DNA of 41,734 bases from Burkholderiales bacterium (GTDB lineage: Bacteria; Pseudomonadota; Gammaproteobacteria; Burkholderiales; Burkholderiaceae_C): NCBI GenBank assembly GCA_003241965.1, contig QBMB01000032.1, forward strand, positions 411 through 42,144, read 5' to 3'. A program made the translations under genes and the position numbers. Positions 954 through 38,011 of the stretch are shown here, piece by piece (within the stretch, counting starts at the first letter, position 1; every line of letters begins with the position of its first letter). Below the pieces are notes generated by a model, which was given only the letters and a program-made list of their open reading frames with translations, did not search any database and was not told the DNA's origin.

Positions 954-2536
954 ATCACGACGAGTTCGAAGACATCAGCCAGCCCCCGCCGCCCGGTGGC
1001 GGGCTGTTCGACCCGACCCTGCGCCCCAACGGTGCAGAGCCGCAGGCCGAGTTTGCTCCTGCACGCCCGCCTGCCAACGGGAACACTCGCCGGCAGGCGC
1101 ATCGCCCCGCCCACGCCGCGCCCGCGCCCTTCGAGCCGCCCTCCAGTTTTGACGCTCACGAGTCCTTCGGCGCTGCCCCCAACGATTCCGGCACCGCCCA
1201 GCTGCGCGTGCCCCCGCACTCCGTGGAGGCCGAGTCGAGCGTGTTGGGCGGCTTGCTGCTGGACAACAGCGCCTGGGACCGGGTGGGCGACTTGCTGAGG
1301 CCCGACGACTTCTACCGCTACGAGCACCGGCTGGTGTTCGAGACGGTCGAGCACCTGGTCAACGCCTCTCAAGCGGCCGACGTGGTCACCGTGTTCGAGC
1401 GCCTGCAGAGCCTGGGCAAGGACGACAGCGCCGGCGGCCTTCAATACCTCAACTCGCTGGCCCAGTACGTGCCGTCGGCCGCCAACATCCGGCGCTACGC
1501 CGAGATCGTGCGCGAGCGCGCCATTCTGCGCCGCCTCATCTCCGCGAGCGATGAGATCGCCACCTCCGCGATGAACCCCCAAGGGCGCGACGTGGCCACG
1601 ATCCTCGACGAGGCCGAGCAGAAGGTGTTTCACATCGGAGAGCAGGGCTCCCGGATGAAAGACGGCTTTCAGTCGATGCACAACCTCGTGGCCCAGCTGA
1701 TCGACGATGTCTCGGCGCGCGCGGACAACCCCAGCGATGTCACGGGCGTGCCCACTGGATACATCGATCTGGACCGCATGACTTCCGGGCTGCAGGCCGG
1801 TGACCTGGTGGTGCTGGCCGCACGCCCCAGCATGGGAAAAACCGCCTTCGCCATCAATATCGCCGAGCACGTGGCGCTCAACGAGGACAAGGCGGTGGCG
1901 GTGTTTTCGATGGAGATGGGAGCGTCACAGCTGGCGCTGCGCATCGTGGGCTCGATCGGGCGCATCCACCAGAGCCACCTGCGCAGCGGCAAACTCACCG
2001 ACGATGAGTGGCCGCGGTTGACCGAGGCCATCGAGCGGCTGCGCAACGTGCGTCTGCACATCGACGACAGCCCAGGCCTCAAACCCTCCGAACTCCGCGC
2101 CAACGCTCGGCGACTGGCCCGCCAGACTGGCGGACTCGGGCTGATCGTGGTCGACTACCTGCAACTCATGAGCGGCAACAACGACGGTGACAACCGCGCC
2201 TCCGAGATTGGGGAGATTTCGCGCGGTCTGAAGATGCTGGCCAAGGAACTGCAGTGCCCGGTGATCGCCTTGTCGCAGCTCAACCGGAGTGTGGAAGCGA
2301 GGGCCGACAAACGCCCCATGATGAGCGACTTGCGCGAGTCCGGCGCCATCGAGCAGGACGCCGACATCATCATGTTCATCTACCGCGATGAGTACTACAC
2401 CAAGGAAGCTTGCAAAGAGCCAGGGGTTGCCGAAATCATCATCGGAAAACAGCGAAACGGCCCGACCGGGACTGTCAAGCTCGCGTTTTTGAACACGCTG
2501 ACGCGCTTCGAAGGATTGTCAAGTTTGGACCCCTGA
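950..2536 (+). CDS. dnaB: Replicative DNA helicase DnaB
   Basis: Hexameric 5'-3' helicase that unwinds DNA at the replication fork. A low-complexity Pro/Ala-rich extension (residues 1-80) precedes the DnaB N-terminal domain (about 85-190, PHSVEAESSVLGGLLLD). The RecA-like motor follows, with Walker A RPSMGKTA (about 292-299) and Walker B LIVVDYLQLM (about 398-407), plus the KQRNGPTG motif near the C terminus. At 528 residues it is longer than a typical DnaB (about 460-470), and the extra length is the N-terminal tail. The GTG start overlaps the previous stop by four bases. A helicase outside a chromosomal DnaB context, next to partition and recombinase genes, points to a replicon that brings its own helicase. 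Confidence 0.95.
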   Translation: MNHDEFEDISQPPPPGGGLFDPTLRPNGAEPQAEFAPARPPANGNTRRQAHRPAHAAPAPFEPPSSFDAHESFGAAPNDSGTAQLRVPPHSVEAESSVLGGLLLDNSAWDRVGDLLRPDDFYRYEHRLVFETVEHLVNASQAADVVTVFERLQSLGKDDSAGGLQYLNSLAQYVPSAANIRRYAEIVRERAILRRLISASDEIATSAMNPQGRDVATILDEAEQKVFHIGEQGSRMKDGFQSMHNLVAQLIDDVSARADNPSDVTGVPTGYIDLDRMTSGLQAGDLVVLAARPSMGKTAFAINIAEHVALNEDKAVAVFSMEMGASQLALRIVGSIGRIHQSHLRSGKLTDDEWPRLTEAIERLRNVRLHIDDSPGLKPSELRANARRLARQTGGLGLIVVDYLQLMSGNNDGDNRASEIGEISRGLKMLAKELQCPVIALSQLNRSVEARADKRPMMSDLRESGAIEQDADIIMFIYRDEYYTKEACKEPGVAEIIIGKQRNGPTGTVKLAFLNTLTRFEGLSSLDP

Positions 2537-9677: not shown

Positions 9678-10029
9678 GGTCTATTTCCTTCTCGCAGAGT
9701 CTTCCGCCAACGATTTCTTGATGGCGGCCGTGTTCGGGCATCGGGCATGCCACCGAGGTAAGTCAATATCGACACGAAGGCGTAAAACGTGAGGAACGCC
9801 GCTTCCCGAAGACGATGTTTTGCCTGCCGGGCTGACCACCTGCTTGGTAAGCGTTGCGCATAGATTCATCGCGTGACGATCTGTCAAGTTTCGTGACGGA
9901 TAGATCCTAGAAAGACATGGGTTGAACCACACACTGCCTTGTTGATCAAACAATGTTTATCATCTCCTGGCCATCCTTGACTGTGGCTATGGCTGGTCAC
10001 ATTTGAAGGTGTTCCATTACGGAAAAGCG

Positions 10030-11625
10030 ATGAAGTTTCCAGTCCCTGACAACGAACAACGAAGAGTTCAGACGCTGCGCGATCTGCAGGTGCTGGATTC
10101 CCTGCCTAGTCCGGTGTTCGACAGCATCACCGAGTTGGCTGCGAGCATCTGCGGGACCGAGATTGCCTTCATTTCTCTGGTGGACGCAGAGCGGCAGTGG
10201 TTCAAGTCCCGCCTGGGATTTGAGCTGAGCGAGACTACCCGTGACGAGGCCTTTTGTTCACACACCATCATGGATACAGGGTCTGTATTGGTGGTCAATG
10301 ACGCAACCCGGGACCCGCGCTTCGCGCAACTTCCCCTGGTGAGCAACGGTAGCGTGCGCTTTTACGCGGGCGCTCCCATCTCCACCGCCAGCGGTCACGC
10401 TCTGGGCGCGGTGTGTGTGCTGGGTCAAGAGAAGATGTTCTTGTCCGAAGTCCAAACGCGCCAGTTGCAGCATCTTGCAAAGCTCACTATGGGCTTGATC
10501 GAACACGAGGCGCTGCGCAGACGCGAGGCGCACAGGATCCTGGATTTGGTTCGCACGAATGAGCGGATCATCCGAAACGTGCTGGACGTAGGTCGCGAGA
10601 TGGCCGCATTCATCGACCCGCAGCACCGCTACCTCTATGTCAATCCAGCTTTTGAGCGGTACTGGATTCAGTCGCAGGAGGCTCTTTTGGGCACATCTGT
10701 ACAGGATTTGGTGGGGGAACGGCTGTACCGTGAGGTGAGCCAAGTCGGTATTAACCAGGCGCTCAGTGGTCACGAATCGCTGCTCACGTTTGAGTACAGA
10801 TTCCCTGGCACAGGCTTGCGCCGCATGGAGCTGCTCCATATCCCCGCACTCAACGATGAGGGGCGAGTGCATGGGGTGGTTGAGCGTCATCGCGACGTGA
10901 CGGAGCTTGCCAAGCAGGCCGACCTTCTGCGCGGCCATGCGGCAGAACTGGAAGTCCGGCGGGTCTCGCAGGATCGGTATCTCCACGCCATTTCACACGA
11001 GTTGAAGCAACCGGTGAATGCGATCAACAACGCTACGCCAGTGTTGGTGGCCAAGTTGGATGGCACGCTCCCTGCGTTGGAGAGGAAATGTTTGACCTAC
11101 ATCGAGCGCGGCGGCCGCCGCCTGGCACGCTTGCTGGAGGACATGCGCCTGGTTGGAGAGTTGGACGCACGCACACTGGCGGTAGCTCCCCACAACGTCC
11201 GCGCGCTGTTAGAAGAGAGTTTGATGCAACTGCGTGATGAAGTGGAGCAGCGTCAGGCGACGGTGGATATTCAGGTCAATGGCGTTCTGTCGGTTGATGC
11301 GCCGGTGTTTGAACTGGCTGTTCGCTGCCTACTTGAGTATTCTTTGTGGTCCTCAGCCAAAACGCCCGCCCAACTGTTGGTGCGGTTAAGCAAGGAGGAA
11401 GGCCAATCACGGCTGGAGATTGTCGACCTCGGCACAGCGAACGCTCTTCCAGTCATCGAGTCTGGACGCGCAGATCAACAATCCACCGCTTTGCCCCCAT
11501 CCACGCTGTCGGTCGCGCGGCAAGTCGCAGTCCTGCACGGGGGCGCGCTGCTGGATGAGCCCACTCCTCAGGGATGGCGGTGCCTGGCTTTGGTGATACC
11601 GCAAGAGGACAGTCATGCACTTTGA
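10030..11625 (+). CDS. GAF-PAS sensor histidine kinase with atypical ATPase domain
   Basis: 531 residues from the ATG at 10030 (an upstream TTG at 10003 is less likely). Domains in order: GAF (about 5-155), PAS (about 175-295, MAAFIDPQHRYLYVNPAFER), HisKA with H-box AISHELKQPVN (His323), and a C-terminal ATPase-like region. The last is degenerate: the N-box position reads RCLLEYSLWSS rather than NLLxNAxK, and the usual DxGxG and GxGLGL boxes are not evident (DLGTANAL, ALPPSTLSVARQVAVLHGG). Autophosphorylation may be weak or depend on a partner. No membrane segment, so it senses in the cytoplasm. The partner receiver overlaps its end by 11 bases. Confidence 0.85.
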   Translation: MKFPVPDNEQRRVQTLRDLQVLDSLPSPVFDSITELAASICGTEIAFISLVDAERQWFKSRLGFELSETTRDEAFCSHTIMDTGSVLVVNDATRDPRFAQLPLVSNGSVRFYAGAPISTASGHALGAVCVLGQEKMFLSEVQTRQLQHLAKLTMGLIEHEALRRREAHRILDLVRTNERIIRNVLDVGREMAAFIDPQHRYLYVNPAFERYWIQSQEALLGTSVQDLVGERLYREVSQVGINQALSGHESLLTFEYRFPGTGLRRMELLHIPALNDEGRVHGVVERHRDVTELAKQADLLRGHAAELEVRRVSQDRYLHAISHELKQPVNAINNATPVLVAKLDGTLPALERKCLTYIERGGRRLARLLEDMRLVGELDARTLAVAPHNVRALLEESLMQLRDEVEQRQATVDIQVNGVLSVDAPVFELAVRCLLEYSLWSSAKTPAQLLVRLSKEEGQSRLEIVDLGTANALPVIESGRADQQSTALPPSTLSVARQVAVLHGGALLDEPTPQGWRCLALVIPQEDSHAL

Positions 11626-18749: not shown

Positions 18750-19514
18750 TTATGACGACTCGGGTGTGACGGCGATGCGTGCAGCGGCCTCCTTGAGGCG
18801 GAAGCTCTTGCCCTCGAACTCCAGCATCGCGCAGCGGTGCATGAGCCGATCCAGGATGGTGCTGGCCATGGTGGCGTCGCCGAGGTATTTGCCCCAGTCC
18901 TGCACCACGCGGTTGGACGTGATGAGAACAGCGCGGCGCAGCTTGTAGCGCTGGTTCACGATGGCCTGCAGGACTTCAGCGGCATGCTCGCTGATGCGTC
19001 TGGCCAGGAACAGGTCATCGAGGACGAGCAGGTCCGGCGCGACCCAGTCCTTGAGCAGCTCGGTGCGCTCTGCCGTAGTGGCCAGCGCGTAACGGGCGAA
19101 CTCGGTGTCGGCTTCCAGGTAACGCACGTCATAGCCCTGCAGCGTTGCCTGGTAGGCCACCGCCTTGGCCACATGGCTCTTGCCGGTGCCCGGCTTGCCG
19201 ATGATCAGCGCGTTGGCCCCCTCGCCGATGAACTTCAGGGTGTGCAACTCGAAGCAGGCGCTACGCGGCAGCTTCGGGTTGAAACGCCAGTCGAAGTCAG
19301 CCAGCGAGGGGCGCTCATCCAGACCCGAGCGCTTGAAGCGGCGCTCGGTCAGGCGAGAGCGCCGGCGGTCCAGCTCGTCTTGCAGCATGGCGGCGAAGGT
19401 CTCCAGGAAAGGCTGCTGGGCGGCCTGGGCCTGCATCACGCGGGTGGACAGGGTCTCGGCGATGCCGGACAGGCGCAGCTCGCGCAGCGCGCGTTCGATC
19501 TCGATCATGTTCAT
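18750..19514 (-). CDS. istB: IS21-family helper ATPase IstB
   Basis: 254 residues. AAA+ ATPase that assists the IstA transposase in target capture. Visible: an N-terminal helical domain (RALRELRLSGIAETLSTRV), Walker A IIGKPGTGKSHVAKA (about 104-118), Walker B DLLVLDDLFLAR (about 160-171) and the sensor region VLITSNR. Length and order match the family. The start ATG overlaps the istA stop (ATGA at 19511-19514), the usual coupling. Confidence 0.94.
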   Translation of the reverse strand: MNMIEIERALRELRLSGIAETLSTRVMQAQAAQQPFLETFAAMLQDELDRRRSRLTERRFKRSGLDERPSLADFDWRFNPKLPRSACFELHTLKFIGEGANALIIGKPGTGKSHVAKAVAYQATLQGYDVRYLEADTEFARYALATTAERTELLKDWVAPDLLVLDDLFLARRISEHAAEVLQAIVNQRYKLRRAVLITSNRVVQDWGKYLGDATMASTILDRLMHRCAMLEFEGKSFRLKEAAARIAVTPESS

Positions 19515-21163
19515 GGCTGAACTCCCGGTGCGTTGGTGGTGTTGTTGGTGGTGGTGGTGGTGGTGTTTGCCGTGGCGGCGGCGAGCGCGAAGAGATCGCT
19601 GTACTCCTCAGCGTCTCGGATGAGCTCATGCTGCTGCGTCAGCGCGTGGGCACCGGCGGCGGGTGCTTCGCCGCAGGCAGCCTCGATGGCCGCCATCGCC
19701 TGGGCAAAGAGGGCTTCGGTCAGCGCCAGCACGCGCTTGTAGCTGTAGACCCCTTGCTCCAGGGCCTGGGCGCAGGCGGCATTGATGCAGTGCGCCGGGT
19801 AACGGCGCATGAGTCCCACAATGCCCCAGAGCTTGCGCTGCCCGACACGACCCTCGATGGCAAAGAGCAGCTCACACAGCCGGCTGGCGTGCTCACCAAT
19901 CTCGCCGGCCTGACGCAGGATCAGGCGGGTCTCGCGAGACGGATTGAACACCCGCTCCTCCATGGGCAGAATCACCGTGCCGGGACGCTCGGCCTTGGCG
20001 TGGGTGCGCAGCAAGGCACGTGTGTGCATGTCACGAATCTCGATGCGCTGGGCGTAGATGCGCACCAACACCTTGGAGCCGATGGGCGCCGGGCGGGCGG
20101 CGTAGCTGCTGTGATCCACCCGCACACAGCTGTCGTCGCAGACGGTGCGCACCGCCTCGTCGAAATACTGCACGCCCAGCAGTGGCAGGGGTTTGAGGTG
20201 GCTGCGCTCCTCCTCGAACATGGCCTGCACCTGGCGTCGCTCGGTGCCGTGGATGCGCTTGGATGCCCAGCTCTTCTCCCAGTGCGCCAGGAACTCGTTC
20301 TGGGCCTCAATGGACTCAAAGCGCCGACCCTTCAAGGCCGTGGCCTGGGTGTGGCCGATGGCATGCTCCACCGTGCCCTTGCGGTTGGGGTCTCGCACCC
20401 GCGCCGGGTCGGCCACCACGCCATAGTGCGCCAAGGCGGCGGCGTACACCGGGTTGAGATCGGGCTCGTACAGGTCGGGCTTGAGGACGCCTTCCTTCAG
20501 ATTGTCCAGCACCACGTACTGGGGGCAGCCCCCGAAGTACCGCAGGGCCTGCTCGTGCAGCTCGGCCCAGATCTGCTGACTGGACTTCCAGACCACGCAC
20601 CGGTAACTGGCACGGGAATATCGCAAGGTGGCCACGAACAGGCGGGGCTTGCGGTACCGGTCGCTGCCGGGCACGCGGGTGGGCGCGCCCTCGCCGTAGT
20701 CCACCTGCATCTCCTCGCCGGGCAGAAAGGACAGGCGATCGAACTGCTCGGGCTCCTTGTGGCGCAGCTTTGCACAGAAGCGTTTGACCGAGTTGTACTG
20801 GCCAGCAAAGCCGTGCTGGTCGACCAGATCCTGGTAGATGGCCGTGGCGTTGCGCTTCAGCCGCAGTTGGGCTTCGATGAACGCGCGCCAGGGTTCGCAC
20901 AGGGAGGTGGCCACCGGCACAGGAGCCGGTGGCCAGGGTGGGGGAATTTGCTCTGCCGAGCCGGTGGCCACCCCGGGGGAATTTGACTGCAGTTGCTCCA
21001 GCCAGCGCTGGTGGTAGCTCCTGACCGTCTTGCGGTCGATACCCGTGATGCGGGCGATCTCGCGTTGCGATGTGTTGCGCTCCAGCAGTGTCTCTATGGT
21101 GGCGCGTTGGTTGGACTTCAAGACATTCACTCCTTGGCCTTCCCTCAGGGAAGACCGGATCAA
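19511..21163 (-). CDS. istA: IS21-family transposase IstA
   Basis: DDE-type transposase, up to 550 residues. N-terminal helix-turn-helix regions (TSQREIARITGIDRKTVRSY) bind the element ends; the catalytic core has the acidic residues in MQVDYGEG, YVVLDNLKEG and GTVEHAIGH. The C-terminal part ends in an Ala/Thr-rich tail with TTTTTTNNTTNAP. The first in-frame start is a TTG at 21163 with a weak ribosome site; a TTG at 21121, eight bases after AAGGAG, is a good alternative. The segment at 20923-20985 contains two 28-bp repeats that echo the element's end motifs. Confidence 0.93.
   Translation of the reverse strand: MIRSSLREGQGVNVLKSNQRATIETLLERNTSQREIARITGIDRKTVRSYHQRWLEQLQSNSPGVATGSAEQIPPPWPPAPVPVATSLCEPWRAFIEAQLRLKRNATAIYQDLVDQHGFAGQYNSVKRFCAKLRHKEPEQFDRLSFLPGEEMQVDYGEGAPTRVPGSDRYRKPRLFVATLRYSRASYRCVVWKSSQQIWAELHEQALRYFGGCPQYVVLDNLKEGVLKPDLYEPDLNPVYAAALAHYGVVADPARVRDPNRKGTVEHAIGHTQATALKGRRFESIEAQNEFLAHWEKSWASKRIHGTERRQVQAMFEEERSHLKPLPLLGVQYFDEAVRTVCDDSCVRVDHSSYAARPAPIGSKVLVRIYAQRIEIRDMHTRALLRTHAKAERPGTVILPMEERVFNPSRETRLILRQAGEIGEHASRLCELLFAIEGRVGQRKLWGIVGLMRRYPAHCINAACAQALEQGVYSYKRVLALTEALFAQAMAAIEAACGEAPAAGAHALTQQHELIRDAEEYSDLFALAAATANTTTTTTNNTTNAPGVQP
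20923..20985. repeat. Two 28-bp direct repeats inside istA that echo the IS ends
   Basis: Copies at 20923-20950 and 20958-20985 share GAGCCGGTGGCCA, four variable bases and GGGGGAATTTG; they start 35 bases apart. Both contain the TGGCCA and GGGGGAATTTG blocks of the terminal repeats, though in a different order. In protein they encode a Pro/Ser-rich linker. They may be extra IstA binding sites or remnants of an older end. Confidence 0.6.
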
Positions 21164-26027: not shown

Positions 26028-26711
26028 TCAATTCGGCAACGCGCGTCGCCCGAAGGCCGCTCGCATTGAAGCTTGAAACTCCGGCTTGCCGCCGTACGAA
26101 GGATGGCGAACGGACAGATCGCAAGCAAGACCCATTCGGTCCATCAGGCCTTGCGATTTCTTTCCGATCGCGACCAGTTTCGCCTTGGGAAACGCGGCCC
26201 TCAGCGCGAGCATTGCGGGTTTACCCTCCATCACCTCGCTCGTTGATGGGGTCCGATTGCAAAGGGGATTGTCTGGGAGGTGCGGATGCATTTGGATGGC
26301 ATTCCACAAGACTGCCTTTTCGGCGAGTCCTACTTCGTAAAGGATTTCCCACACGGCGGCAGCGCTGCCTTCTTTGAATGGACCGCTCGCGTACCCTGAA
26401 AGACGCTCGTAGCCACGCGCGACACGGGGAATCGCGCCGCTGAGTATCTGATCCTCGCAGGTGAAGGCAACACCAGACACGGCTGCCCCGCGCCAGCCAG
26501 GCGCTTCGCCGACGAGGATCACCTCGGGATCGCAATCGAGGTGTGCTCCAAGTCGCCCAAGCTTCGCCTTAGGACTGTTGCCATGTGCGTCCATTTGGTG
26601 AGGCGTAGCGTAGGGATTGAACAACCCCTCCCGGGTAGGAGGGAGCAGGGAGGCAAGCTCCTGAGCCAAAGCCATCGCCGTTGGACTCACGGAATAGCCC
26701 TCAGTCATCAT
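26028..26711 (-). CDS. Uracil-DNA glycosylase superfamily protein
   Basis: 227-228 residues from tandem ATGs at 26711/26708. Two signature motifs of the uracil-DNA glycosylase fold are visible: ILVGEAPGWRGAA (motif 1, GExPG, about 60 residues in) and LSVRHPSYGGKPE near the C terminus (motif 2, HPS). The central WNAIQMHPHLPDN fits the usual Asn/aromatic region. The N-terminal half lacks the four iron-sulfur cysteines of families 4 and 5, so the subfamily is unclear. The family removes uracil or related bases; on a mobile replicon it could repair or modify DNA. The start overlaps the 57-residue gene by 11 bases. Confidence 0.75.
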   Translation of the reverse strand: MMTEGYSVSPTAMALAQELASLLPPTREGLFNPYATPHQMDAHGNSPKAKLGRLGAHLDCDPEVILVGEAPGWRGAAVSGVAFTCEDQILSGAIPRVARGYERLSGYASGPFKEGSAAAVWEILYEVGLAEKAVLWNAIQMHPHLPDNPLCNRTPSTSEVMEGKPAMLALRAAFPKAKLVAIGKKSQGLMDRMGLACDLSVRHPSYGGKPEFQASMRAAFGRRALPN

Positions 26712-26874
26712 GGTTCCCAAACTGGTCGATGCTGCCGTGGTTGTGGGTAACGGCCCGGCCCCCACCGCTGGAACCTCCCTCGTCGTCATCCCCGCCACCA
26801 CCATCACTGGTCAGACCTTTGAAGCCAAGGTACGCGATCAAAACGATACCAATCAACGAAAGCAAAGTTGCCAT
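26701..26874 (-). CDS. 57-residue single-pass membrane protein
   Basis: Found by direct reading. Starts MATLLSLIGIVLIAYLGFKG at 26874 with TGAGGTAG about ten bases upstream. Residues 3-18 form one hydrophobic helix, and the rest is a Gly/Asp/Ser-rich tail (SDGGGGDDEGGSSGGGRAV) ending NHDD. Its stop overlaps the start of the glycosylase gene (ATGATGACTGA), so both are translated from one message. No family recognised. Confidence 0.6.
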   Translation of the reverse strand: MATLLSLIGIVLIAYLGFKGLTSDGGGGDDDEGGSSGGGRAVTHNHGSIDQFGNHDD

Positions 26875-27720: not shown

Positions 27721-28806
27721 TCAACGGTTCGCACTTCCCATGCGCTGGGTGTACTCGGCGACGATCTGGAAGCCCCGCACGTTCGAGAAGGCCGCGCCGG
27801 CGTCGATGCGAAGGCGCGGGCGCAGCTCAGGGTGCTGCTCACGCAGATAATCGTAGAACACCGCACCGCCACCACCGCACACCAGGATGCTGTGAAAGTC
27901 CTCCAGAGCGCCGATGGTGTCGAGCATCGCGTTGTAGCCCCCGCGCAGCACGTCGCTGATGGCCCCCGAGAAGTCGGACATCGCGTATTCCACACCCGAG
28001 ATGCGGATCGTCTCGTTGCGCTCGCGGATCGCTGCATCGATTTCTTGAATGATGCTGTACTGGCCGCGCAGGCTTGGGTTGATCATCTTGGCCACGGCGG
28101 AAGCGCAGGCCAGCATCGATTCTGGATGCGCACCGGACCGCTCGTAGTTGGGAGCCTTGTCACGGGCAACAAGGAAGTCGATGGTGCCGCCGCCCACGTC
28201 GATGACCAAGTTCCACCCGCTCAGATTGAAGTCGGGATGGGTCAGGCCGTAGTTGTACAGAGCGCCCATAGGCTGAACCATCACCGAGGCATCCACCACC
28301 GTGACATGGCGCGCACCGACACTGGGATCGGGGCTCACGACTTCATGACGGCCGACCACGATGCTGCGAAGCCGATCACGGTATTCAAGGTACGTGTTCA
28401 GCGGCAACCCCACCGTCAGGTGCTCGATCGCCATTTCTTGCGGGTTGCCAGCATCCTCCAGCATGTAGTGCATCGCACCGCGCATCAGTGCAAGGTACGA
28501 GGGGGAGGTGCAGTAGTCCTTCATCACATGTCGAGGCTGGACGCCCTTCAGGTGCATGTCCACGCCGCGGCCTGCGAAGTGGGGGACGCCGTTGACTTCG
28601 CTGATGCAGCCGTCAGCACCGTGCGTACCAGGCGCGTGCATGAACGTGGCATTTGGCCGCAACGTGGCAGTGATGGATGGGAACAAGTCGGCGTGAACCA
28701 TGTTGATCCCGTTGACCTGCTTGCGGCCGCAGGTGAATTTCGTGTTGGCGTACCCCACGTCGATGGCTCGAGCTGGGACGCTGGTGATGTTCGTATCGCG
28801 TTTCAT
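27721..28806 (-). CDS. parM: Actin-like plasmid segregation ATPase ParM/StbA
   Basis: 361 residues from the ATG at 28806 (AAGGAGAG upstream). The actin-type nucleotide site is clear: phosphate-1 AIDVGYANTKF (about 14-24), phosphate-2 LVIDVGGGTIDFLVAR (about 200-215) and the adenosine motif SILVCGGGGAVFYDYL (about 315-330). ParM filaments push plasmid copies apart when capped by ParR bound to the centromere. The frame extends 44 codons further upstream but that part crosses the repeat region. The downstream parR-like gene, the terminator and the upstream palindromic repeats complete a type II partition locus. Confidence 0.85.
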   Translation of the reverse strand: MKRDTNITSVPARAIDVGYANTKFTCGRKQVNGINMVHADLFPSITATLRPNATFMHAPGTHGADGCISEVNGVPHFAGRGVDMHLKGVQPRHVMKDYCTSPSYLALMRGAMHYMLEDAGNPQEMAIEHLTVGLPLNTYLEYRDRLRSIVVGRHEVVSPDPSVGARHVTVVDASVMVQPMGALYNYGLTHPDFNLSGWNLVIDVGGGTIDFLVARDKAPNYERSGAHPESMLACASAVAKMINPSLRGQYSIIQEIDAAIRERNETIRISGVEYAMSDFSGAISDVLRGGYNAMLDTIGALEDFHSILVCGGGGAVFYDYLREQHPELRPRLRIDAGAAFSNVRGFQIVAEYTQRMGSANR

Positions 28807-28900
28807 GGGACTCTCCTTGAAGAAATTGCATGCACGGGGTGTGCTGGTAGGGGAGTTTCTGGTCGCATGCACAAGTGCGCAAGCGATGGCGACCAGTCCG

Positions 28901-28937
28901 TGGCCCGGAGTGGTCCGGAGCGGGCCACTCCGGGCCA
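28901..28937. repeat. parC-like palindromic repeat, copy 1
   Basis: TGGCCCGGAGTGG (28901-28913) and its exact complement (28925-28937) flank an 11-base centre. First of three 37-bp repeats upstream of parM; 95 bases before its start. Confidence 0.7.
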
Positions 28938-28974
28938 ATGCCAGCTAGAAGGAGTGAGGAAACGGTACGTGTGC

Positions 28975-29011
28975 TGGCCCGGGGTGGCCCGCGCCGGGCC
29001 GTTCCGGGCCA
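28975..29011. repeat. parC-like palindromic repeat, copy 2
   Basis: 37 bp beginning TGGCCCGGGGTGG, starting 74 bases after copy 1. The outer 8 bp are palindromic (TGGCCCGG/CCGGGCCA), and an inner GGCCC-GCGCC-GGGCC palindrome is present. Confidence 0.7.
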
Positions 29012-29056
29012 CACCAAGTACATGAGGGAGAAAAATGGGCTTTGACTCCCATCGTC

Positions 29057-29093
29057 TGGCCCGGGGTGGCCCGCGCCGGGCCATTCCGGGCCA
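29057..29093. repeat. parC-like palindromic repeat, copy 3
   Basis: 37 bp differing from copy 2 at a single base (ATT for GTT in the right arm), starting 82 bases after copy 2. Together the three copies are a good candidate for the centromere and autoregulatory operator of the par operon. Confidence 0.7.
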
Positions 29094-29474
29094 GGGAGCG
29101 TAGAGGTGCAACGCGCGGCCCAGCCATACGTGCACGACAACCCAATCCTCGCGCTCGCCCAACAGATCTGGTCCTTCAGTCAGGTCATGGATGAAAGCGC
29201 AGGGCGAACCTCTGTTGAAGCCTCACAGACCCACTTACCGCCAAGCAAAGTTGAGTCCTCCAGATGAGATGTCAACAAGGGGCACTGGTATCAATGGAGG
29301 AGAGACAAAAAATGAACGCTTAAAGACAGAGTGATAACAAGAGGGTTGTATTGCAAGCCATTTTTTCCAACATACAAAGAGAGGAAAGGGGGAAGGAAAG
29401 CTTTCTTTAGTCTGTGGATAACCCAACGACAGCACGAACGGCGAGCGCGGTTGCCCACAACTGGTCCGCATCAC
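29094..29474. other. Non-coding region with DnaA box; possible replication origin
   Basis: No convincing gene. AT-rich, purine-rich stretch at about 29270-29420 (runs of A and G, TTTTTT at 29361) followed by a perfect DnaA box on the minus strand, TTATCCACA (complement of 29413-29421). Near-matches TTGCCCACA occur at 29451-29459 and 29742-29750. The pairing of an AT-rich block and a DnaA box beside the partition locus fits an origin, but no iteron array or initiator gene was identified. Confidence 0.4.
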
Positions 29475-29503
29475 GTGACAGGACTCAGAACAGCCCCTAC
29501 TAT
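29475..29503 (+). promoter_or_regulatory. Candidate promoter of the structured RNA/recombinase unit
   Basis: GTGACA (29475-29480), a 17-base spacer and TACTAT (29498-29503). Transcription from about 29510 would cross the hairpin-rich region and reach the recombinase start at 30356. The 380 bases between this site and the first clear hairpin at 29891 hold no gene I can support. Confidence 0.4.
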
Positions 29504-29890
29504 CCGCTTCGCTGTACCTCGGTACGTCGACATCCCGGTTCACTCCAGTGATGTCCTAGCCCATCGGGCAAACCGCCAACCGACGCTCCACTGTGAGTGT
29601 CCTAAGGCAACAAGTCGGCCTCCCACGTTGGAAGTCGCAAACCAAGACGGTGCTCTGTATGGGGCATCGCAAAACAGGTCGCATAAAGACCAGCTGCTGA
29701 GCCCGCGATGCGGTTCAGAAGTGGTGGCCCCCGGATGGGGATTGCCCACAGCAAGCTAACAAGGCCTTCCTATGGAGGTCGCCAGCCAACGCTCCGAGCT
29801 ACGGAGCATGTGTGGACGCGCAAGCGTATAGATCAACTCACGTTTTGACTTTGCTCTGACGACTACCTCCGGGTGGCACGTCACAAGTAC

Positions 29891-30324
29891 CTCCCGCCTG
29901 GCAATTGAGCCGGGAGCCCTCTGGGCCTAAAAAGGGGCAGGTTGGACAAGCAGCAAAGGACAACGCCGCCAAATCAGTCTGGCGGTGAAGTGAGTTCACC
30001 TGGGTAGTGAATAACTACTCTGGTCTAGCCCACCACACAAGGCTCTGTCTCAAGAAGACAGTACCCCCCCGACGCCATCACTGCGTCGGGGTGCCCATCT
30101 AGTAAGGATGGGGGTCACACGGGGATTCCACCCGTGCCGACAGGATGGCTTGCTAACGAAAAACGGAAACCACTGAAGACTGTTGTGCCTTGCCCAGGGG
30201 CCTTGTACCGGGCGAACCAGTAGCGAAGAGATGAAAAAGGAGCCAGAGCGATCTGGAGGTCTGAGGTTGCTTGGAGGGTTGACACATGCAGGTAGCGAAA
30301 GCCGCCTTCAGGTGTGAACCCTCC
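29891..30324 (+). ncRNA. Candidate structured non-coding RNA upstream of the recombinase
   Basis: At least nine consecutive stems: CTCCCG 29891/29911; CCGCC 29966/29981; GGTGAA 29984/29995; GTAGT 30004/30014; CTGTCT 30045/30056; a perfect 9-bp CCCCGACGC 30067/30083; CCCATC 30094/30107; CACGGG 30118/30131; CCAGA 30243/30252 capped by a GCGA tetraloop; and a long arm GGAGGGTT-ACAC pairing 30273-30285 with 30312-30324, topped by a GAAA loop (30297-30300). Loops are short and stems closely packed, with no open reading frame of quality. It ends 32 bases before the recombinase ATG. It does not show group II domain V, RNase P, tmRNA or a riboswitch core I know. It could be an independent RNA or a long regulatory leader. 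Confidence 0.6.
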
Positions 30325-30328
30325 AGGT

Positions 30329-30358
30329 GGAGAGTCATGTCAGAAAAGGAGAGTCATG
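30329..30358 (+). promoter_or_regulatory. Duplicated ribosome site and start codon
   Basis: GGAGAGTCATG occurs at 30329-30339 and again at 30348-30358. The first ATG (30337) opens a 24-codon frame overlapping the recombinase start in another frame; the second leads the recombinase. A leader peptide with translational coupling is possible. Confidence 0.45.
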
Positions 30359-31849
30359 ATGGACGAAGGCAAGTCGTTTGGTATGGGCGATGCATCCGCA
30401 GGTGGAAATGAGGCTGGACGGTCGTATAACGGTCCTCCATCCCGGCCGAAGAAGAAAGCAACATTTCAACGCAAGTCACGTGCACAGACCCTGAAGCGGG
30501 GAGGACCTGGCAGTGCCAAGCCACGTTCGGACCACGCCATCGCGGTGTATCCGAACGACCCGCAAAAGCAGATGGCAATCTTTCTGGACGGGCTGGATCC
30601 TCAGTCTTTCATCGGACGTGAACGTTCGGTGTCGCACCTCACGGAAACGCGCTTCGGTCAAACCCTCAAACGCATGATCGGTGAACTAAGCGAACTGAAC
30701 ATGCCTATCCAGCGCATTGACCAGGTCAGCCGCCGCCACGCAGCTGCCCTGGTCGTGCGCTGGTTGAACGAAGAAAAGCAGTGTGCTGCCACCGTCAACA
30801 ACAAGGTGAGTTTCATCCGCAAGTACTGCGAACTCATTGGGAAGGTGGGCGCGATCCCCAAGGGAGAGGAGTGGTACCAACTTCTGGAATCGAAGGGCGT
30901 ACCGCGCAGTGCCTTAGTGCGCCAGCAGGTGGCCTATGGCAGCAAGACCTGGAGCGCTGCAGGAATCCAGCCCATTGGCATCGCCGCTCTGTTGGCGGAG
31001 GATCATTACCACGAGTCATTGCTCGTCGAGCTGATGTATTACTTCGGGTTGCGGGTGTCGGAGGCGCTCAGTCTCAACCCCACCCGCTCAGATGTTGTGG
31101 GCGGTCTGATGTTGACGTCAGGCACCAAGGGCGGGAAGGATCGCCTGGTCCCCTACATGGACGACGCTGAAATTAAAGCAAAGCAGCGTGACGTGTTGGA
31201 CCGTGCGATCGCATGGGTGAACAAGAACAACCGGCGTGGTGACATGGGCTACCCGGGACTGTCAATGGAGAAGTCCCGTCAGAAGTACTACAACACGCTG
31301 CATTCGGTGGGCGTGACAAAAGCGCACATGGGTGTTGTCAGCCATGGTTTGAGGCACGAGTACGCTGCCAACATGTTCGAGCAGATCACTGGGCATCGCC
31401 CCCCTGTGGAAGGACAAGAGCCATCGGATTGGTTCAAGAACAACCGGGAACTGGTCGATCACGCCTACCTCAAGGTGTCGGAGGCATTGGGCCACTGGCG
31501 CAAGAGCATCTCAGCTGCGTACCTTGGCTCCATCGCAGGGATGAGCAAGACGCAGAAGCATCGCATCGAAAAGCTGATCGAGATGTTCCAGAACACGCCT
31601 GGCGTAGCTGAAGGCTTGCTTGCGGTGGGCATCGAGCGTGCGTGGCTGACCGGTCGCGGTGGTCAAGGCATCCAGCTGGCCCTTCACGAGCGGATTCAAC
31701 TCACGGTGTCTTTGAAACAGGGCGGGTCGTGGTCTGTTCTCAACGACGCACACGCCTTGCTCGAAAAGTTGCTTCCTGGCCGCGTGATGGTCGCGCCATT
31801 GCTCGGTGGCGTGCAACCCGATGACGGCGTGGAGGTTTTTCTGGACTGA
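30356..31849 (+). CDS. Tyrosine recombinase (integrase family), intact
   Basis: 497 residues from the ATG at 30356 (or 30359), with AAAAGGAG seven bases upstream. A basic, disordered N-terminal tail (1-60) precedes the core-binding domain and the catalytic domain. All active-site residues can be seen: Arg233 in YFGLRVSEAL, Lys in SGTKGGKDRLVPY, His330 and Arg333 in VSHGLRHEYA, His380 in EALGHWRKS and the nucleophile Tyr389 in ISAAYLGS. A C-terminal extension of about 100 residues follows the tyrosine. The enzyme should perform site-specific recombination, resolving plasmid multimers or integrating an element. No att site or excisionase was found nearby; the structured RNA directly upstream is its most unusual feature. 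Confidence 0.85.
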   Translation: MMDEGKSFGMGDASAGGNEAGRSYNGPPSRPKKKATFQRKSRAQTLKRGGPGSAKPRSDHAIAVYPNDPQKQMAIFLDGLDPQSFIGRERSVSHLTETRFGQTLKRMIGELSELNMPIQRIDQVSRRHAAALVVRWLNEEKQCAATVNNKVSFIRKYCELIGKVGAIPKGEEWYQLLESKGVPRSALVRQQVAYGSKTWSAAGIQPIGIAALLAEDHYHESLLVELMYYFGLRVSEALSLNPTRSDVVGGLMLTSGTKGGKDRLVPYMDDAEIKAKQRDVLDRAIAWVNKNNRRGDMGYPGLSMEKSRQKYYNTLHSVGVTKAHMGVVSHGLRHEYAANMFEQITGHRPPVEGQEPSDWFKNNRELVDHAYLKVSEALGHWRKSISAAYLGSIAGMSKTQKHRIEKLIEMFQNTPGVAEGLLAVGIERAWLTGRGGQGIQLALHERIQLTVSLKQGGSWSVLNDAHALLEKLLPGRVMVAPLLGGVQPDDGVEVFLD

Positions 31850-35958: not shown

Positions 35959-36929
35959 ATGGAATCTGACAACGCCGCCGCAGCCACCGCAACGGAATAC
36001 GCGCCAGCCTATGTCGTCGAGCACATCCCTCCCAGTCTGGACGCCCGCTTCGCCCCGCAGACGCGCAAGTTCAGCTTCTTTCTGGGCGACCACAGCCTGA
36101 CCGTACAGACCGGCGCCGTGTGCGACCAGGTCAAGGCGGTCTCCCCCAACCTCAGAGCCTGCCTTCACCTGGAGAGCGCATCTCGCGGGCGACTCTTTCT
36201 TGGCGTGGTGACAAGTCCCAGCGTTCACAAGGATCAGGCCACGATTGGTGATCTGCAGGCCTTGGTCGCCTCGGTCCAACTCAGACCGTGCGTGGATTGC
36301 ACCGAGCACTTCCTGATAAACCCGCTCATGCCCAACCGCGCGGTTTGCAGGACGTGTTTTCATTTGCGCAAGACGCGTCTGGCCGGAGACATTCTCATTG
36401 GGCAGCGCGAGCATCTCAGCCGAAGGCGCGCCGATATCCAGAAGGCCTGCGACGACGGCATGACGCATGTCGTGATCCGCAAGAAGGACATGCTCTTGCA
36501 CCTGGAGCGATTTGTGCGGTTGCCGGATGAGGTGCGCAGTCATCTTTGCACGCTTGAGGTGTGCCGGTTCACCTTCGACAAGCCCTATGCCGACGATTTC
36601 GTTGCGCCGTTTGCCACCTACGAAGGTCCCCTGGACCCGCCAGAGCAGGCAGTGGTGATGACCGTGCAGGATTTTCTGGAGCAGACCGTGAAGCGCCAGG
36701 CAGCGGTTCAAAACCTGATGCGCGGAACCAAAGGTCTGAGGGACCGCGCAGGCGTATCGATGATGAAGGAAATCCAGCGTTTGAAGGGCCCGTCCCCCTC
36801 GACCTCGTTTTCGAGATCGACACCGGCTCGGGCCCGACCAAGACGCGTGTCGATATTGAGGCAGCTCGCCGAGCTAGCGAGATGAACAGTCGTATCTCAA
36901 CAGCAAGCCTGTCCAGCAGCAGGCCTTGA
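35959..36929 (+). pseudogene. Cysteine-knuckle protein, family member 2, with a one-base shift near the end
   Basis: The first frame gives 308 residues to 36885: N-terminal FAPQTRKFSFFLGDHSLTVQ, knuckle QLRPCVDCTEHFLINPLM then NRAVCRTCFHLRK, and a helical C-terminal half. The last 40 residues of that frame (GPSPSTSFSRSTPARARP) are basic and unlike a protein end. Adding one G at GGG 36786-36788 continues as GPVPLDLVFEIDTGSGPT, KTRVDIEAARRASEMNSRIS, stopping at 36927-36929, for about 323 residues. The layout matches the proteins at 33383 and 38961. The break may be a sequencing error or true inactivation. Confidence 0.6.
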
Positions 36930-36953
36930 CAACGCAAGGGTGGCTGCTAGCTT
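36926..36953 (+). promoter_or_regulatory. Candidate sigma-70 promoter, twin 1
   Basis: TTGACA (36926-36931), 16 bases, TAGCTT (36948-36953), followed by GGATTGAGG. The same arrangement and flanking bases recur at 38828-38855. It begins inside the stop region of the preceding restored frame and would drive the gene at 37073. Confidence 0.55.
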
Positions 36954-37072
36954 GGATTGAGGGTTGCTCAGTGCCCCCCCACACCGTTTTGAAGGACGGC
37001 TCTGCCGCCTGTCTCAACGCTTCCTGTTGCCCTCCGATGGCAAGAATTCACCAACCAACCTTTCTAGAACAC

Positions 37073-38011
37073 ATGAATCATCTCCAAGCTCTCAAGCGCG
37101 CCGTTCTTGGCGTCCTCCTGATGGCACCCGCCCTGTGCATGGCCTGGGGTGCGATTGCATCCAACCCGGAAACGGGCACACACATCGCAACGGGCCACGC
37201 CAGCGCGGCCGAGGCCGAGCAGGAGGCGATCGAGCGGTGCGAGGAGAAGGGGCTGGCCTGCTCCCTCTTGATCACAGGCAGCAACGCTGGAGCCTTCGTG
37301 GTCTACGTGAGCAAGGGGGGCTACCACGGAGCGTTCGCACGTGACCCTGCCCAGGCAGACAAACTTGCCAAGGCCAACTGCCGCAAGAACAACAAGGTCT
37401 GTGAGATCCGGTCTGCGGCGTGGGACAGGGGCGCCGTCTGGCTCGCCGTGGCCATGAGCGACACCGGATCATGGGTTCGCTACAACAACCCGGACCCCGA
37501 GGCTGTTCAAGAGCAAGCCATGGCCGACTGCCTGAGCAACTCGACTGCACCCAAAACGTGCAAACTGCTGGGCGACGCCGCTCACAAAGGGAGTGTCGCG
37601 ATCGCAACCTCGGACAGCGCCCAACTCAGCTACATCAAAGTCGCTCTCGACCGTGAAACGGCCGCAAGTGGGGCTCTGAAGGGCTGCGCAGCATTGCCCA
37701 GCAAGCCCCTTGACTGCAAGGTGGCCCAGCAATACAGCAATGATGACCCGCTGCCCAGCCCCAAGGCGATGCAAGCACTGGAAGCACAGGCCGAGAAGAA
37801 CCGCGCCGCCGCTATGCGTGTGAAAGCTCCAGCACCTGTAAAAAGCGTTCGCAGCACCGCCAGGACCACCGAGCACTACACCTGCGAGACCAGCTGCACG
37901 AACGCCAGCTGCGTGAGCCGGTTCGACGACGGAACGATCCTGCACTGGACCGCACAGATGAAACACGACGGCTTCAAGTGGGCCCTGGACACCTCGGGCT
38001 GCGGGCGTTGA
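37073..38011 (+). CDS. Secreted DUF4189-like protein
   Basis: 312 residues from MNHLQALKRAVLGVLLMAPA, a signal peptide cleaved near residue 25. The mature part begins WGAIASNPETGTHIATGHA, SAAEAEQEAIERCEEKG, the pattern of the DUF4189 family of exported repeats (Gly-Ala-Ile-Ala start, Ala/Glu helix, paired cysteines). A second, looser copy follows (GAVWLAVAMSDTGSWVRYN, then DCLSN and KTCKLL). The C terminus has a cysteine-rich YTCETSCTNASCVSRFDDG. It likely acts in the periplasm with disulfide bonds; function unknown. Confidence 0.6.
   Translation: MNHLQALKRAVLGVLLMAPALCMAWGAIASNPETGTHIATGHASAAEAEQEAIERCEEKGLACSLLITGSNAGAFVVYVSKGGYHGAFARDPAQADKLAKANCRKNNKVCEIRSAAWDRGAVWLAVAMSDTGSWVRYNNPDPEAVQEQAMADCLSNSTAPKTCKLLGDAAHKGSVAIATSDSAQLSYIKVALDRETAASGALKGCAALPSKPLDCKVAQQYSNDDPLPSPKAMQALEAQAEKNRAAAMRVKAPAPVKSVRSTARTTEHYTCETSCTNASCVSRFDDGTILHWTAQMKHDGFKWALDTSGCGR

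What the first reader, a model, noticed from the sequence alone, without database searches (positions are those of the whole stretch)
29891..30324. Large hairpin-rich RNA directly upstream of a tyrosine recombinase
About 430 bases carry at least nine consecutive good stems, including a perfect 9-bp stem and a long terminal arm with a GAAA loop plus a separate GCGA loop, and no coding frame of quality. It ends just before the recombinase start, and a candidate promoter lies at 29475-29503. It matches none of the structured RNA classes I can recall. It could be a new RNA partner or long control leader for a recombinase, or a large independent RNA.
Basis: partly seen in the sequence, partly recalled or inferred. 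Interest (0 to 1): 0.78.

Follow-up and report, generated by a model that had tools for sequence, protein, structure and literature searches.

The report
Giant structured RNA beside plasmid recombinase
Bacteria related to Hydrogenophaga carry, on plasmids and chromosomes, a seemingly undescribed folded RNA of about 800 bases that is conserved better than the DNA-recombining enzyme gene beside it, which suggests a new kind of large bacterial RNA whose job is still unknown.

Summary
The conserved unit runs from a promoter at 29475-29503 (start near 29510) to about 30323, roughly 815 nt, and ends 35 nt before the recombinase ATG (30359). Model R1 finds it in 19 loci: 18 upstream of relatives of the same recombinase (down to about 30% identity), one decayed copy. 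Compensatory changes are strong, and a strand-neutral test shows that it folds as RNA on the recombinase strand. No Rfam match; no frame stays open through it. Against four close relatives the RNA is 88-91% identical, the recombinase gene 61-65%.

The RNA sits in a recurring module: actin-like ParM gene (-), 1.1-2.0 kb gap, recombinase (+); 58 of 72 informative loci. In Burkholderia/Paraburkholderia/Cupriavidus and in Aquabacterium/Massilia relatives the same gap also covaries. Covariance models do not link the Burkholderiaceae type to the Hydrogenophaga type, so common descent is only proposed, and most distant recombinase relatives lack a detectable RNA of this type.

Best reading: a new class of giant ornate RNA, probably co-transcribed with the recombinase and its partner or regulator in element maintenance. 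RNA identity is near certain; function is inferred.

The parts
29475..29503 (+). sigma-70-like promoter of the RNA (GTGACA, 17-nt spacer, TACTAT)
   Evidence: Only promoter-like site found by the scan of 29300-30450; hexamers about 17 nt apart, of varying quality, at the aligned place in most of the other 16 homologues, read by eye. Start site near 29510 is inferred.
29510..30323 (+). large structured RNA, about 815 nt
   Evidence: nhmmer profile from 8 homologues aligns nearly end to end in them; covariation; strand test; fold z -4.65.
29750..29757 (+). 5' strand of a long-range helix closing the 3' domain; partner 30147-30154
   Evidence: AGCAAGC/GCUUGCU here, AGUAAUCC/GGAUUACU, UAGCAACA/UGUUGCUA, UAGCAAAC/GUUUGCUA in relatives; only 4 bp in G024 and G001a, 5 bp in G046.
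30147..30158 (+). 3' strand of the closing helix and the CUAACG motif
   Evidence: CUAA(C/A)G in all 17 sequences of A2; CUAA(A/C)GG follows the closing helix in the 16 Burkholderia/Cupriavidus-type sequences.
29835..29996 (+). second long-range helix 29835-29841/29990-29996 and the arm inside it
   Evidence: RNAalifold on 8 homologues; compensatory changes at 29838/29993, 29839/29992, 29846/29962, 29847/29961.
29998..30144 (+). row of six hairpins or short helices, including the perfect 9-bp stem 30067-30091
   Evidence: five of the six were counted in alignment A2, each with at least one pair changed on both sides.
30273..30323 (+). terminal arm with GAAA loop, ends 35 nt before the recombinase ATG
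   Evidence: compensatory pairs 30276/30320 and 30277/30319. No U-run follows it.
30359..31849 (+). tyrosine recombinase, 496 aa, XerC/D-like, with about 100 residues beyond the catalytic tyrosine
   Evidence: Pfam Phage_integrase 4.8e-10; NCBIfam XerC/XerD hits below their cut-offs; invariant HxLRH ... Y388; AlphaFold2 mean pLDDT 85; PDB matches are integron integrase, lambda Int, XerA, Cre.
27721..28938 (-). divergent ParM-like actin, akin to PRTRC system protein D (true start probably near 28806)
   Evidence: Pfam ALP_N 7.9e-20, above cut-off; TIGR03739 PRTRC_D 3.2e-44 but 151 bits, below its cut-off of 215.
28897..29097 (.). three imperfect palindromic repeats of about 40 bp upstream of the actin gene, centromere-like
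   Evidence: Self-matches at 28897-28937, 28974-29011, 29056-29097. The centromere role is inferred.

Best explanation
It is a new class of giant ornate RNA, about 815 nt, transcribed from its own conserved promoter as the first part of the recombinase transcription unit in a plasmid or mobile-element maintenance module (actin-like partition gene, RNA, tyrosine recombinase). Shown: a conserved, covarying fold with the G-U bias of RNA on the recombinase strand; a promoter-like site; no intrinsic terminator found in the window before the recombinase; linkage to recombinase and actin gene; RNA better conserved than the recombinase gene in all 7 relatives compared. Inferred: that it is transcribed, that the folded RNA is itself the product, and that it acts with or on the recombinase, as an RNA partner that assembles with it or controls its use (for instance in multimer resolution), rather than as a passive leader. 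By function I put RNA partner/regulator of the recombinase at about 0.4, pure cis leader 0.25, independent trans-acting RNA 0.25, other 0.1.
For: Covariation against two controls: 14 of 26 pairs change on both sides, 0 of 500 shuffles reach this; slides of 1-3 columns drop cells paired from 94.9% to 27-42%. Folding five distant members on their own gives many of the same helices, by eye. Strand test with G-U forbidden during folding: pairs with G-U against pairs with A-C are 45:17 and 37:12 in two Hydrogenophaga-type groups; coding controls 16:13 and 19:17. RNA against recombinase gene, nucleotide identity to the window: 88-91% against 61-65% in four relatives, 95 against 89 (G032a), 65 against 58 (G024), 68 against 52 (G022). 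Model R1 hits 19 of 32 sources at E <= 1.3e-4; 17 of the 19 were its training set, two (L136, other genus, 3.8e-14; L057, 1.3e-4) were not, and both lie just upstream of the recombinase. No + strand terminator-like site in 16 of 18 RNA-recombinase intervals.
Against: No transcript or 5' end was seen and no RNA-protein binding tested. Most distant recombinase relatives give no match to R1: 65 of 66 sources without a significant hit, so the enzyme family does not need this type of RNA. The actin gene is linked too (59 of 72 informative loci), so the partner could be the actin or DNA; and the actin gene is better conserved than the RNA in G001a/G024 (68.5% against 64-65%), G001b, G037b and JS666. 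L136 has the RNA but no actin within 5.9 kb. L113 keeps the RNA without a recombinase, though it looks like decay. The closing helix is only 4 bp in G024/G001a. The count of further pair types is less decisive (22 of 500 shuffles reach it). Two intervals hold a weak terminator-like site. It is rare: 11 of 67 genomes in the genus, 3 of 399 in the family, the window's own included, under strict filters.
Confidence: 0.5

Rival explanations
1. It is a very long cis-regulatory 5' leader of the recombinase mRNA, controlling it by attenuation or by folding near the start codon.
For: Same strand, directly 5' of the gene, promoter-like site at its head, no terminator-like site between in 16 of 18 intervals; Shine-Dalgarno-like AAGGAG just before the ATG.
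Against: About 815 nt is several times the size of known leaders (recalled); the RNA is better conserved than the gene it would control in 7 of 7 relatives compared.
Confidence: 0.25
2. It is an independent trans-acting ornate RNA of a mobile element, working like GOLLD, ROOL or OLE (for example as an RNA multimer), only neighbouring the recombinase.
For: Size, many hairpins, long-range helices, plasmid setting in some carriers. A very abundant long RNA, later counted as ROOL, lies on a Lactobacillus salivarius megaplasmid (PMC5643018, passages); ROOL forms cages (PMC12286853, passages).
Against: No Rfam relation; no terminator of its own found; among the 19 R1 loci it is followed by something other than the recombinase only in L113.
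Confidence: 0.25
3. The block is a DNA element: a folded single-stranded recombination site (integron attC-like) or cruciform used by the recombinase.
For: Best PDB match of the recombinase model is the integron integrase structure 2a3v (remote, TM-score 0.35 on the query); a recombinase gene often lies beside its site (recalled).
Against: Tolerance of G-U rather than A-C on one strand, 45:17 and 37:12 pairs, against about 1:1 in coding controls; promoter-like site; length and multi-branch fold far beyond an attC site.
Confidence: 0.04
4. It is replication RNA: a preprimer or origin transcript of the plasmid.
For: A perfect DnaA-box sequence (consensus recalled) at 29413-29421 and TTATCCACA upstream of the RNA in Polaromonas JS666.
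Against: pMOL28, which carries the same kind of gap, has a known replication and partition region (title of Taghavi 1996 seen in the reference list of PMC2864759; that it lies elsewhere is recalled); some Hydrogenophaga copies sit in replicons of 4.4-4.7 Mb.
Confidence: 0.05
5. Ordinary: a coding region, a repeat or a chance fold.
For: GC-rich DNA folds easily; an ORF of 142 aa overlaps it at 29331-29759.
Against: 4-14 stops in every frame in 8 homologues, non-triplet indels, covariation beyond shuffles and slides.
Confidence: 0.01

Closest known systems
ROOL RNA (incl. the lncRNA of the Lactobacillus salivarius megaplasmid)
   Same: Large ornate RNA on mobile DNA, function unknown (PMC5643018, PMC12286853; passages).
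   Different: No Rfam match; here in a ParM-recombinase gap in Proteobacteria, followed by the recombinase gene; ROOL is described from phages and prophages, often near tRNA islands.
GOLLD RNA
   Same: Many members over 800 nt; one part of the molecule better conserved than the rest (PMC12286853, passages; for ours).
   Different: No Rfam match; no tRNA in the window; no match in phage records.
OLE RNA
   Same: Large ornate RNA with protein partners (passages); gene of one partner directly downstream (recalled).
   Different: No Rfam match; extremophile Firmicutes (recalled); the neighbour here is a DNA recombinase.
RNAs in the 5' region of recombinase/nuclease genes of mobile elements (IS110 bridge RNA, IscB omega RNA/HEARO), recalled
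   Same: Structured RNA directly upstream of, and on the strand of, the enzyme that moves or cuts DNA.
   Different: Those are a few hundred nt, with transposase or nuclease genes of other families; no guide sequence was sought here.
STAXI motif (Weinberg 2010, PMC2864571, passages)
   Same: Structured motif near XerDC-type integrases.
   Different: Tandem short pseudoknots, listed for Enterobacteriales; ours is one 815-nt unit.
PRTRC system protein D / ParM modules
   Same: The actin gene beside the RNA is of this kind (below the family cut-off; several relatives are annotated so).
   Different: In the library searched no paper holds both 'PRTRC' and 'noncoding RNA'.

Membership tests
GOLLD / ROOL / OLE (Rfam families) | Match to the Rfam covariance model at gathering score | tested here: not met
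   0 matches in the window; only two chance-level hits of other families at E <= 5 in 29300-30400; 0 in 11 related loci; in 15 more loci only a tRNA and ncS54, both outside the gap.
GOLLD / ROOL / OLE | RNA-only multimer (cage or dimer) | not testable with these tools
   Needs cryo-EM or native gels.
GOLLD / ROOL | Phage/prophage setting near tRNA genes | tested here: not met
   No tRNA in the window; no match in 50,697 phage records nor for one RNA pattern in viral contigs.
Group I / group II introns, HEARO | Rfam model match | tested here: not met
   (that these families are in Rfam is recalled).
Integron attC-like folded DNA site | Structure conserved without strand preference for G-U | tested here: not met
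   Pairs with G-U: A-C 45:17 and 37:12 on the recombinase strand.
Cis-regulatory leader | Co-transcribed 5' of the gene, no terminator between | tested here: inconclusive
   Same strand; 16 of 18 intervals without a terminator-like site, two with a weak one. Co-transcription itself was not observed.
Cis-regulatory leader | Deleting or changing it alters expression of the gene | not testable with these tools
   Needs reporter experiments.
RNA partner of a recombinase | RNA-protein binding | not testable with these tools
   Needs pull-down or CLIP.
Tyrosine recombinase | Catalytic R..K..HxxR..H..Y and fold | tested here: met
   Invariant R232, K257, H329, R332, H379, Y388 in 36 sequences; Pfam; PDB matches.
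Burkholderia/Cupriavidus gap RNA as the same family | Found by the covariance model of the other type | tested here: not met
   R1 finds none of L130-L134 and L137-L141 at E <= 0.5; R2 finds no RNA in the Hydrogenophaga-type loci (52 sources, best E 1.5, on the other strand).

The most novel reading that the evidence does not exclude
Every PRTRC-D/ParM-recombinase module of large proteobacterial plasmids, including the classical megaplasmids pMOL28 and pHG1, carries a member of one ancient superfamily of giant RNAs that has diverged beyond sequence recognition, and this RNA is a working part of DNA segregation or recombination: the first RNA-dependent tyrosine recombinase or RNA-containing partition machine.
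Probability: 0.15. Interest if true: 0.95.

Novelty: categorically new. Interest (0 to 1): 0.82.

Why it matters
Classes of bacterial RNA of this size are few and mostly unexplained. This one comes with a fixed genetic setting, a partition actin on one side and a recombinase on the other, so its function can be tested by plasmid stability and recombination assays. Similar structured gaps on pMOL28 and pHG1, plasmids of well-used laboratory bacteria, would make the question testable at once. If the RNA works with the recombinase, it would be a new principle in site-specific recombination.

Tried and rejected
Rfam search of the window at gathering score and of the region at E <= 5: nothing convincing. 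DNA searches of plasmids (29850-30340) and phages (29450-30340) with the window RNA found nothing; so did one RNA pattern in viral contigs. A recombinase search of viral contigs gave one locus, of the Aquabacterium group. The RNAalifold closing helix 29458-29466/30214-30223 was dropped, since it would lie upstream of the promoter. The covariance models of the two types do not find each other, so common descent is not claimed as shown. The strand test is clear in the Hydrogenophaga types (45:17, 37:12 pairs) and in Massilia relatives (43:11), weaker in Aquabacterium relatives (34:20), Burkholderia/Paraburkholderia (33:20) and Cupriavidus (28:21), and absent when all 16 Burkholderiaceae sequences are aligned together (33:33). 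In the recombinase coding control pairs are 16:13 but cells 36:18, so cell counts alone should not be trusted. For the Aquabacterium group RNAalifold gives the reverse strand a slightly lower energy than the forward strand (-487 against -465). Fold z-scores of 300-nt windows in the other gaps are mixed: strongly low on the + strand in Paraburkholderia BN5 and Sulfuricystis, not low in Janthinobacterium (none under -0.9) and at best -2.5 in the PBL-H3 plasmid. A first global nucleotide identity of recombinase genes was inflated by gap placement and replaced by codon alignment. A search for a (T/A)-A-(C/A)-G motif with a partner strand in 91 gaps found a candidate in 80, but the pattern is common by chance and no shuffle control was run, so it is not used as proof. 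Papers: 7 searches (listings seen) gave no description of this RNA; passages only were read in PMC5643018, PMC12286853, PMC7563307, PMC9166356, PMC2864571 and PMC2864759. Weinberg 2017 (10.1093/nar/gkx699) is not held. The C. metallidurans start-site study PMC7563307 has no passage on this gap in the parts seen, and its tables could not be read.

Full report
1. The observation. Rfam gives no match in the whole window at gathering score and only two chance-level hits at E <= 5 around the region. ARAGORN finds no tRNA or tmRNA.

2. The true extent. A DNA search of 100 genomes (the window's own included) finds matches in 9 of 100; two of these are short (G081, 33 bases; G048, 44 bases, later shown by the models to be real; G081 was not followed up). 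Alignment of the homologues shows conservation from about 29455 to 30323; apart from the closest copy (G032a) it stops there, just before the recombinase. A sigma-70-like site, GTGACA-17-TACTAT at 29475-29503, is the only one the scan found in the region. At the same place in most of the other 16 homologues hexamers about 17 nt apart can be read by eye, while the spacer varies; their quality differs, and in the Polaromonas JS666 copy the alignment is shifted. The start is therefore put near 29510 and the RNA at about 815 nt (z -4.65, 0 of 20 shuffles). In 300-nt windows the z is uneven along the molecule.

3. It is RNA, and on the recombinase strand. In alignment A2 (17 sequences, window 29988-30158) 94.9% of cells pair against 84.7% in shuffles, 14 of 26 pairs change on both sides, and none of 500 shuffles reaches either; the number of further pair types is reached by 22 of 500; sliding partners by 1-3 columns drops pairing to 27-42%. 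The structure was derived from this alignment, which favours it over the slid versions. A long-range helix (29750-29757 with 30147-30154) is rewritten in step across lineages: AGCAAGC/GCUUGCU, AGUAAUCC/GGAUUACU, UAGCAACA/UGUUGCUA, UAGCAAAC/GUUUGCUA; own partners give 7.8 Watson-Crick pairs on average, foreign partners 5.75; G024 and G001a keep only 4 and G046 only 5. To decide RNA against DNA, alignments were folded on both strands with G-U pairs forbidden, and the pairs found on both were scored: pairs with a G-U outnumber pairs with an A-C 45:17 (9 sequences) and 37:12 (5 distant sequences); coding controls give 16:13 and 19:17 (cell counts in the first control are 36:18). All six frames hold stops in 8 homologues.

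4. Conservation compared with the neighbours. Against the window, RNA (29510-30324) and codon-aligned recombinase gene are: G032a 95.3 and 89.1%; G037a 88.0 and 63.4; G029 87.6 and 61.8; G032b 88.4 and 61.0; Limnohabitans L050 90.9 and 65.2; G024 64.9 and 57.6; G022 67.7 and 51.7. So in 7 of 7 the RNA is the better conserved. Against the actin gene the picture is mixed: RNA ahead in G037a, G029, L050 (88-91 against 70-71%), G022 (67.7 against 64.1) and slightly BPS33 (53.5 against 51.3); actin ahead in G001a and G024 (68.5 against 64-65), G001b, G037b and JS666. Strong selection on the RNA, or exchange of recombinase genes around it, would both give the first pattern.

5. Distribution. Model R1 (174 positions, built from A2) hits 19 of 32 sources at E <= 1.3e-4. 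Seventeen of these 19 are the sequences it was built from; the two others are L136 (another genus of the family, 3.8e-14) and L057 (a gammaproteobacterial MAG, 1.3e-4), and both lie just upstream of a recombinase of this family. L047 shows a partial match cut by the contig end (E 0.26, not counted). Of 66 further sources, nearly all of them recombinase relatives, only L057 gave a significant match, so most distant members of the recombinase family lack a detectable RNA of this type. By genomes: 11 of 67 in the genus and 3 of 399 drawn from the family, own genome included, with strict filters. One carrier is Hydrogenophaga sp. PBL-H3, recognised by its 319,548-base plasmid. The RNA occurs on plasmids (PBL-H3, BPS33, Polaromonas JS666) and on replicons of 4.4-4.7 Mb.

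6. The module. Profiles of the recombinase and of the ParM-like actin were run on 84 loci (ten re-fetched copies and the ten short loci L144-L153 were left out); 83 have the recombinase (L113 does not). Of these, 11 hold too little upstream sequence and 13 hold at least 2.6 kb upstream without the actin; 59 have the actin within 6 kb, always divergent. In 58 of the 59 the distance between aligned starts is 1,102-1,960 bases; in one (L041) a deletion has removed it. So the arrangement holds in 59 of 72 informative loci, with a real gap in 58. The loci were gathered by recombinase similarity, so this is not a random sample. Among the 13 without actin are Comamonas L111, Shewanella L142 and Klebsiella L143 and also L136, which does carry the RNA.

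7. Other bacteria, same gap. The pMOL28 gap finds 23 plasmid records and the Burkholderia cenocepacia gap 42, the queries' own included; ten matches were fetched, nine of the ten are annotated, and all nine show PRTRC protein D on one side, a recombinase on the other (annotated as integrase in seven, as helix-turn-helix protein in two) and no listed gene between (the gene tables of that collection are incomplete). pHG1 has one small hypothetical gene in its gap. A 16-sequence alignment of one part covaries: 91.0% of cells paired against 81.9% shuffled, 12 of 28 pairs changed on both sides, 0 of 500 for both; further pair types are not beyond chance (140 of 500). Groups of Aquabacterium/Piscinibacter relatives (15 loci) and Massilia/Janthinobacterium relatives (11 loci) also give large covarying folds, though in the first the reverse strand folds slightly better. 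The strand test in these groups is 34:20, 43:11, 33:20 (Burkholderia/Paraburkholderia), 28:21 (Cupriavidus), and 33:33 when all 16 Burkholderiaceae sequences are put together: supportive in some, weak in others. In the Burkholderia/Cupriavidus type a long-range helix is again followed by CUAA(A/C)G. Neither covariance model finds the other type. One superfamily is thus a proposal from position and plan, not a result. An order-wide search with the Burkholderiaceae model hit 1 of 399 genomes under strict filters.

8. The enzyme. The recombinase has the catalytic residues of tyrosine recombinases invariant in 36 sequences, a confident predicted fold (mean pLDDT 85) with a small extra C-terminal part, and resembles integron integrase, lambda Int, XerA and Cre (TM-scores on the query 0.23-0.40 among the 50 listed, so remote). 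Its target site is unknown.

9. How it most likely works. Anatomy gives promoter-like site, RNA, then recombinase without a terminator-like site in the window and in 16 of 18 intervals. The most economical reading is one transcription unit whose first 0.8 kb is a folded RNA. I favour an RNA that works with or on the recombinase in the upkeep of the element: in 18 of the 19 R1 loci the RNA lies directly upstream of the recombinase, over a range of recombinases down to about 30% identity, and large RNAs and small partner RNAs often lie beside the gene of their protein (OLE with OapA, IS110 bridge RNA, omega RNA; recalled). The reverse does not hold, since many relatives of the enzyme lack this RNA type. 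A pure leader and an independent ornate RNA remain nearly as likely, and the actin could be the partner. None of these functional steps was shown.

10. Known or new. No Rfam family fits, and seven paper searches gave no description; most subscription journals and preprints are not in that library, and the 2017 list of 224 candidate RNAs could not be read. The nearest kinds are the giant ornate RNAs GOLLD, ROOL and OLE (PMC12286853, passages read), one of which, ROOL, was also found on a megaplasmid (PMC5643018, passages read). Our RNA shares size and elaborateness with them but not sequence family or gene setting. I call it categorically new as an RNA class, with the caution that 'giant ornate RNA of mobile DNA' as a loose kind is already known.

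Noticed in passing
window 28897-29097: Three imperfect palindromic repeats of about 40 bp, about 80 bp apart, upstream of the ParM-like gene; repeats of other sequence stand there in L130 and L133 (read by eye). They look like a plasmid centromere.
   Followed up: partly
window 29413-29421: A perfect DnaA-box sequence (TGTGGATAA) upstream of the RNA promoter; TTATCCACA also lies upstream of the RNA in Polaromonas JS666 (L109).
   Followed up: no
L113 8698-10432: Decayed copy: ParM remnant and a well-scoring RNA (R1 154 bits) but no recombinase of the family; an AAA ATPase gene follows and another integrase precedes.
   Followed up: partly
L041 about 9868-11050: A copy in which a deletion has brought actin and recombinase remnants together and removed the RNA.
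   Followed up: partly
window 31595-31849 (recombinase residues 413-496): Small C-terminal alpha/beta extension beyond the catalytic tyrosine; role unknown.
   Followed up: partly
G032 C147 and C112 (L035, L044, L038): One genome holds three copies of the RNA, two of them on the same 146-kb contig.
   Followed up: no
window 18750-21163: IS21-like element (IstB helper ATPase and rve transposase).
   Followed up: no
window 950-2536, 26028-26807, 36926-38011: DnaB helicase, uracil-DNA glycosylase and DUF4189 genes; the PBL-H3 plasmid carries genes of the same names near its copy, so the window may be part of a related plasmid or integrated element.
   Followed up: partly
L139 6695-6773: Rfam match to Burkholderia sRNA ncS54 on the B. 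cenocepacia plasmid, outside the gap.
   Followed up: no
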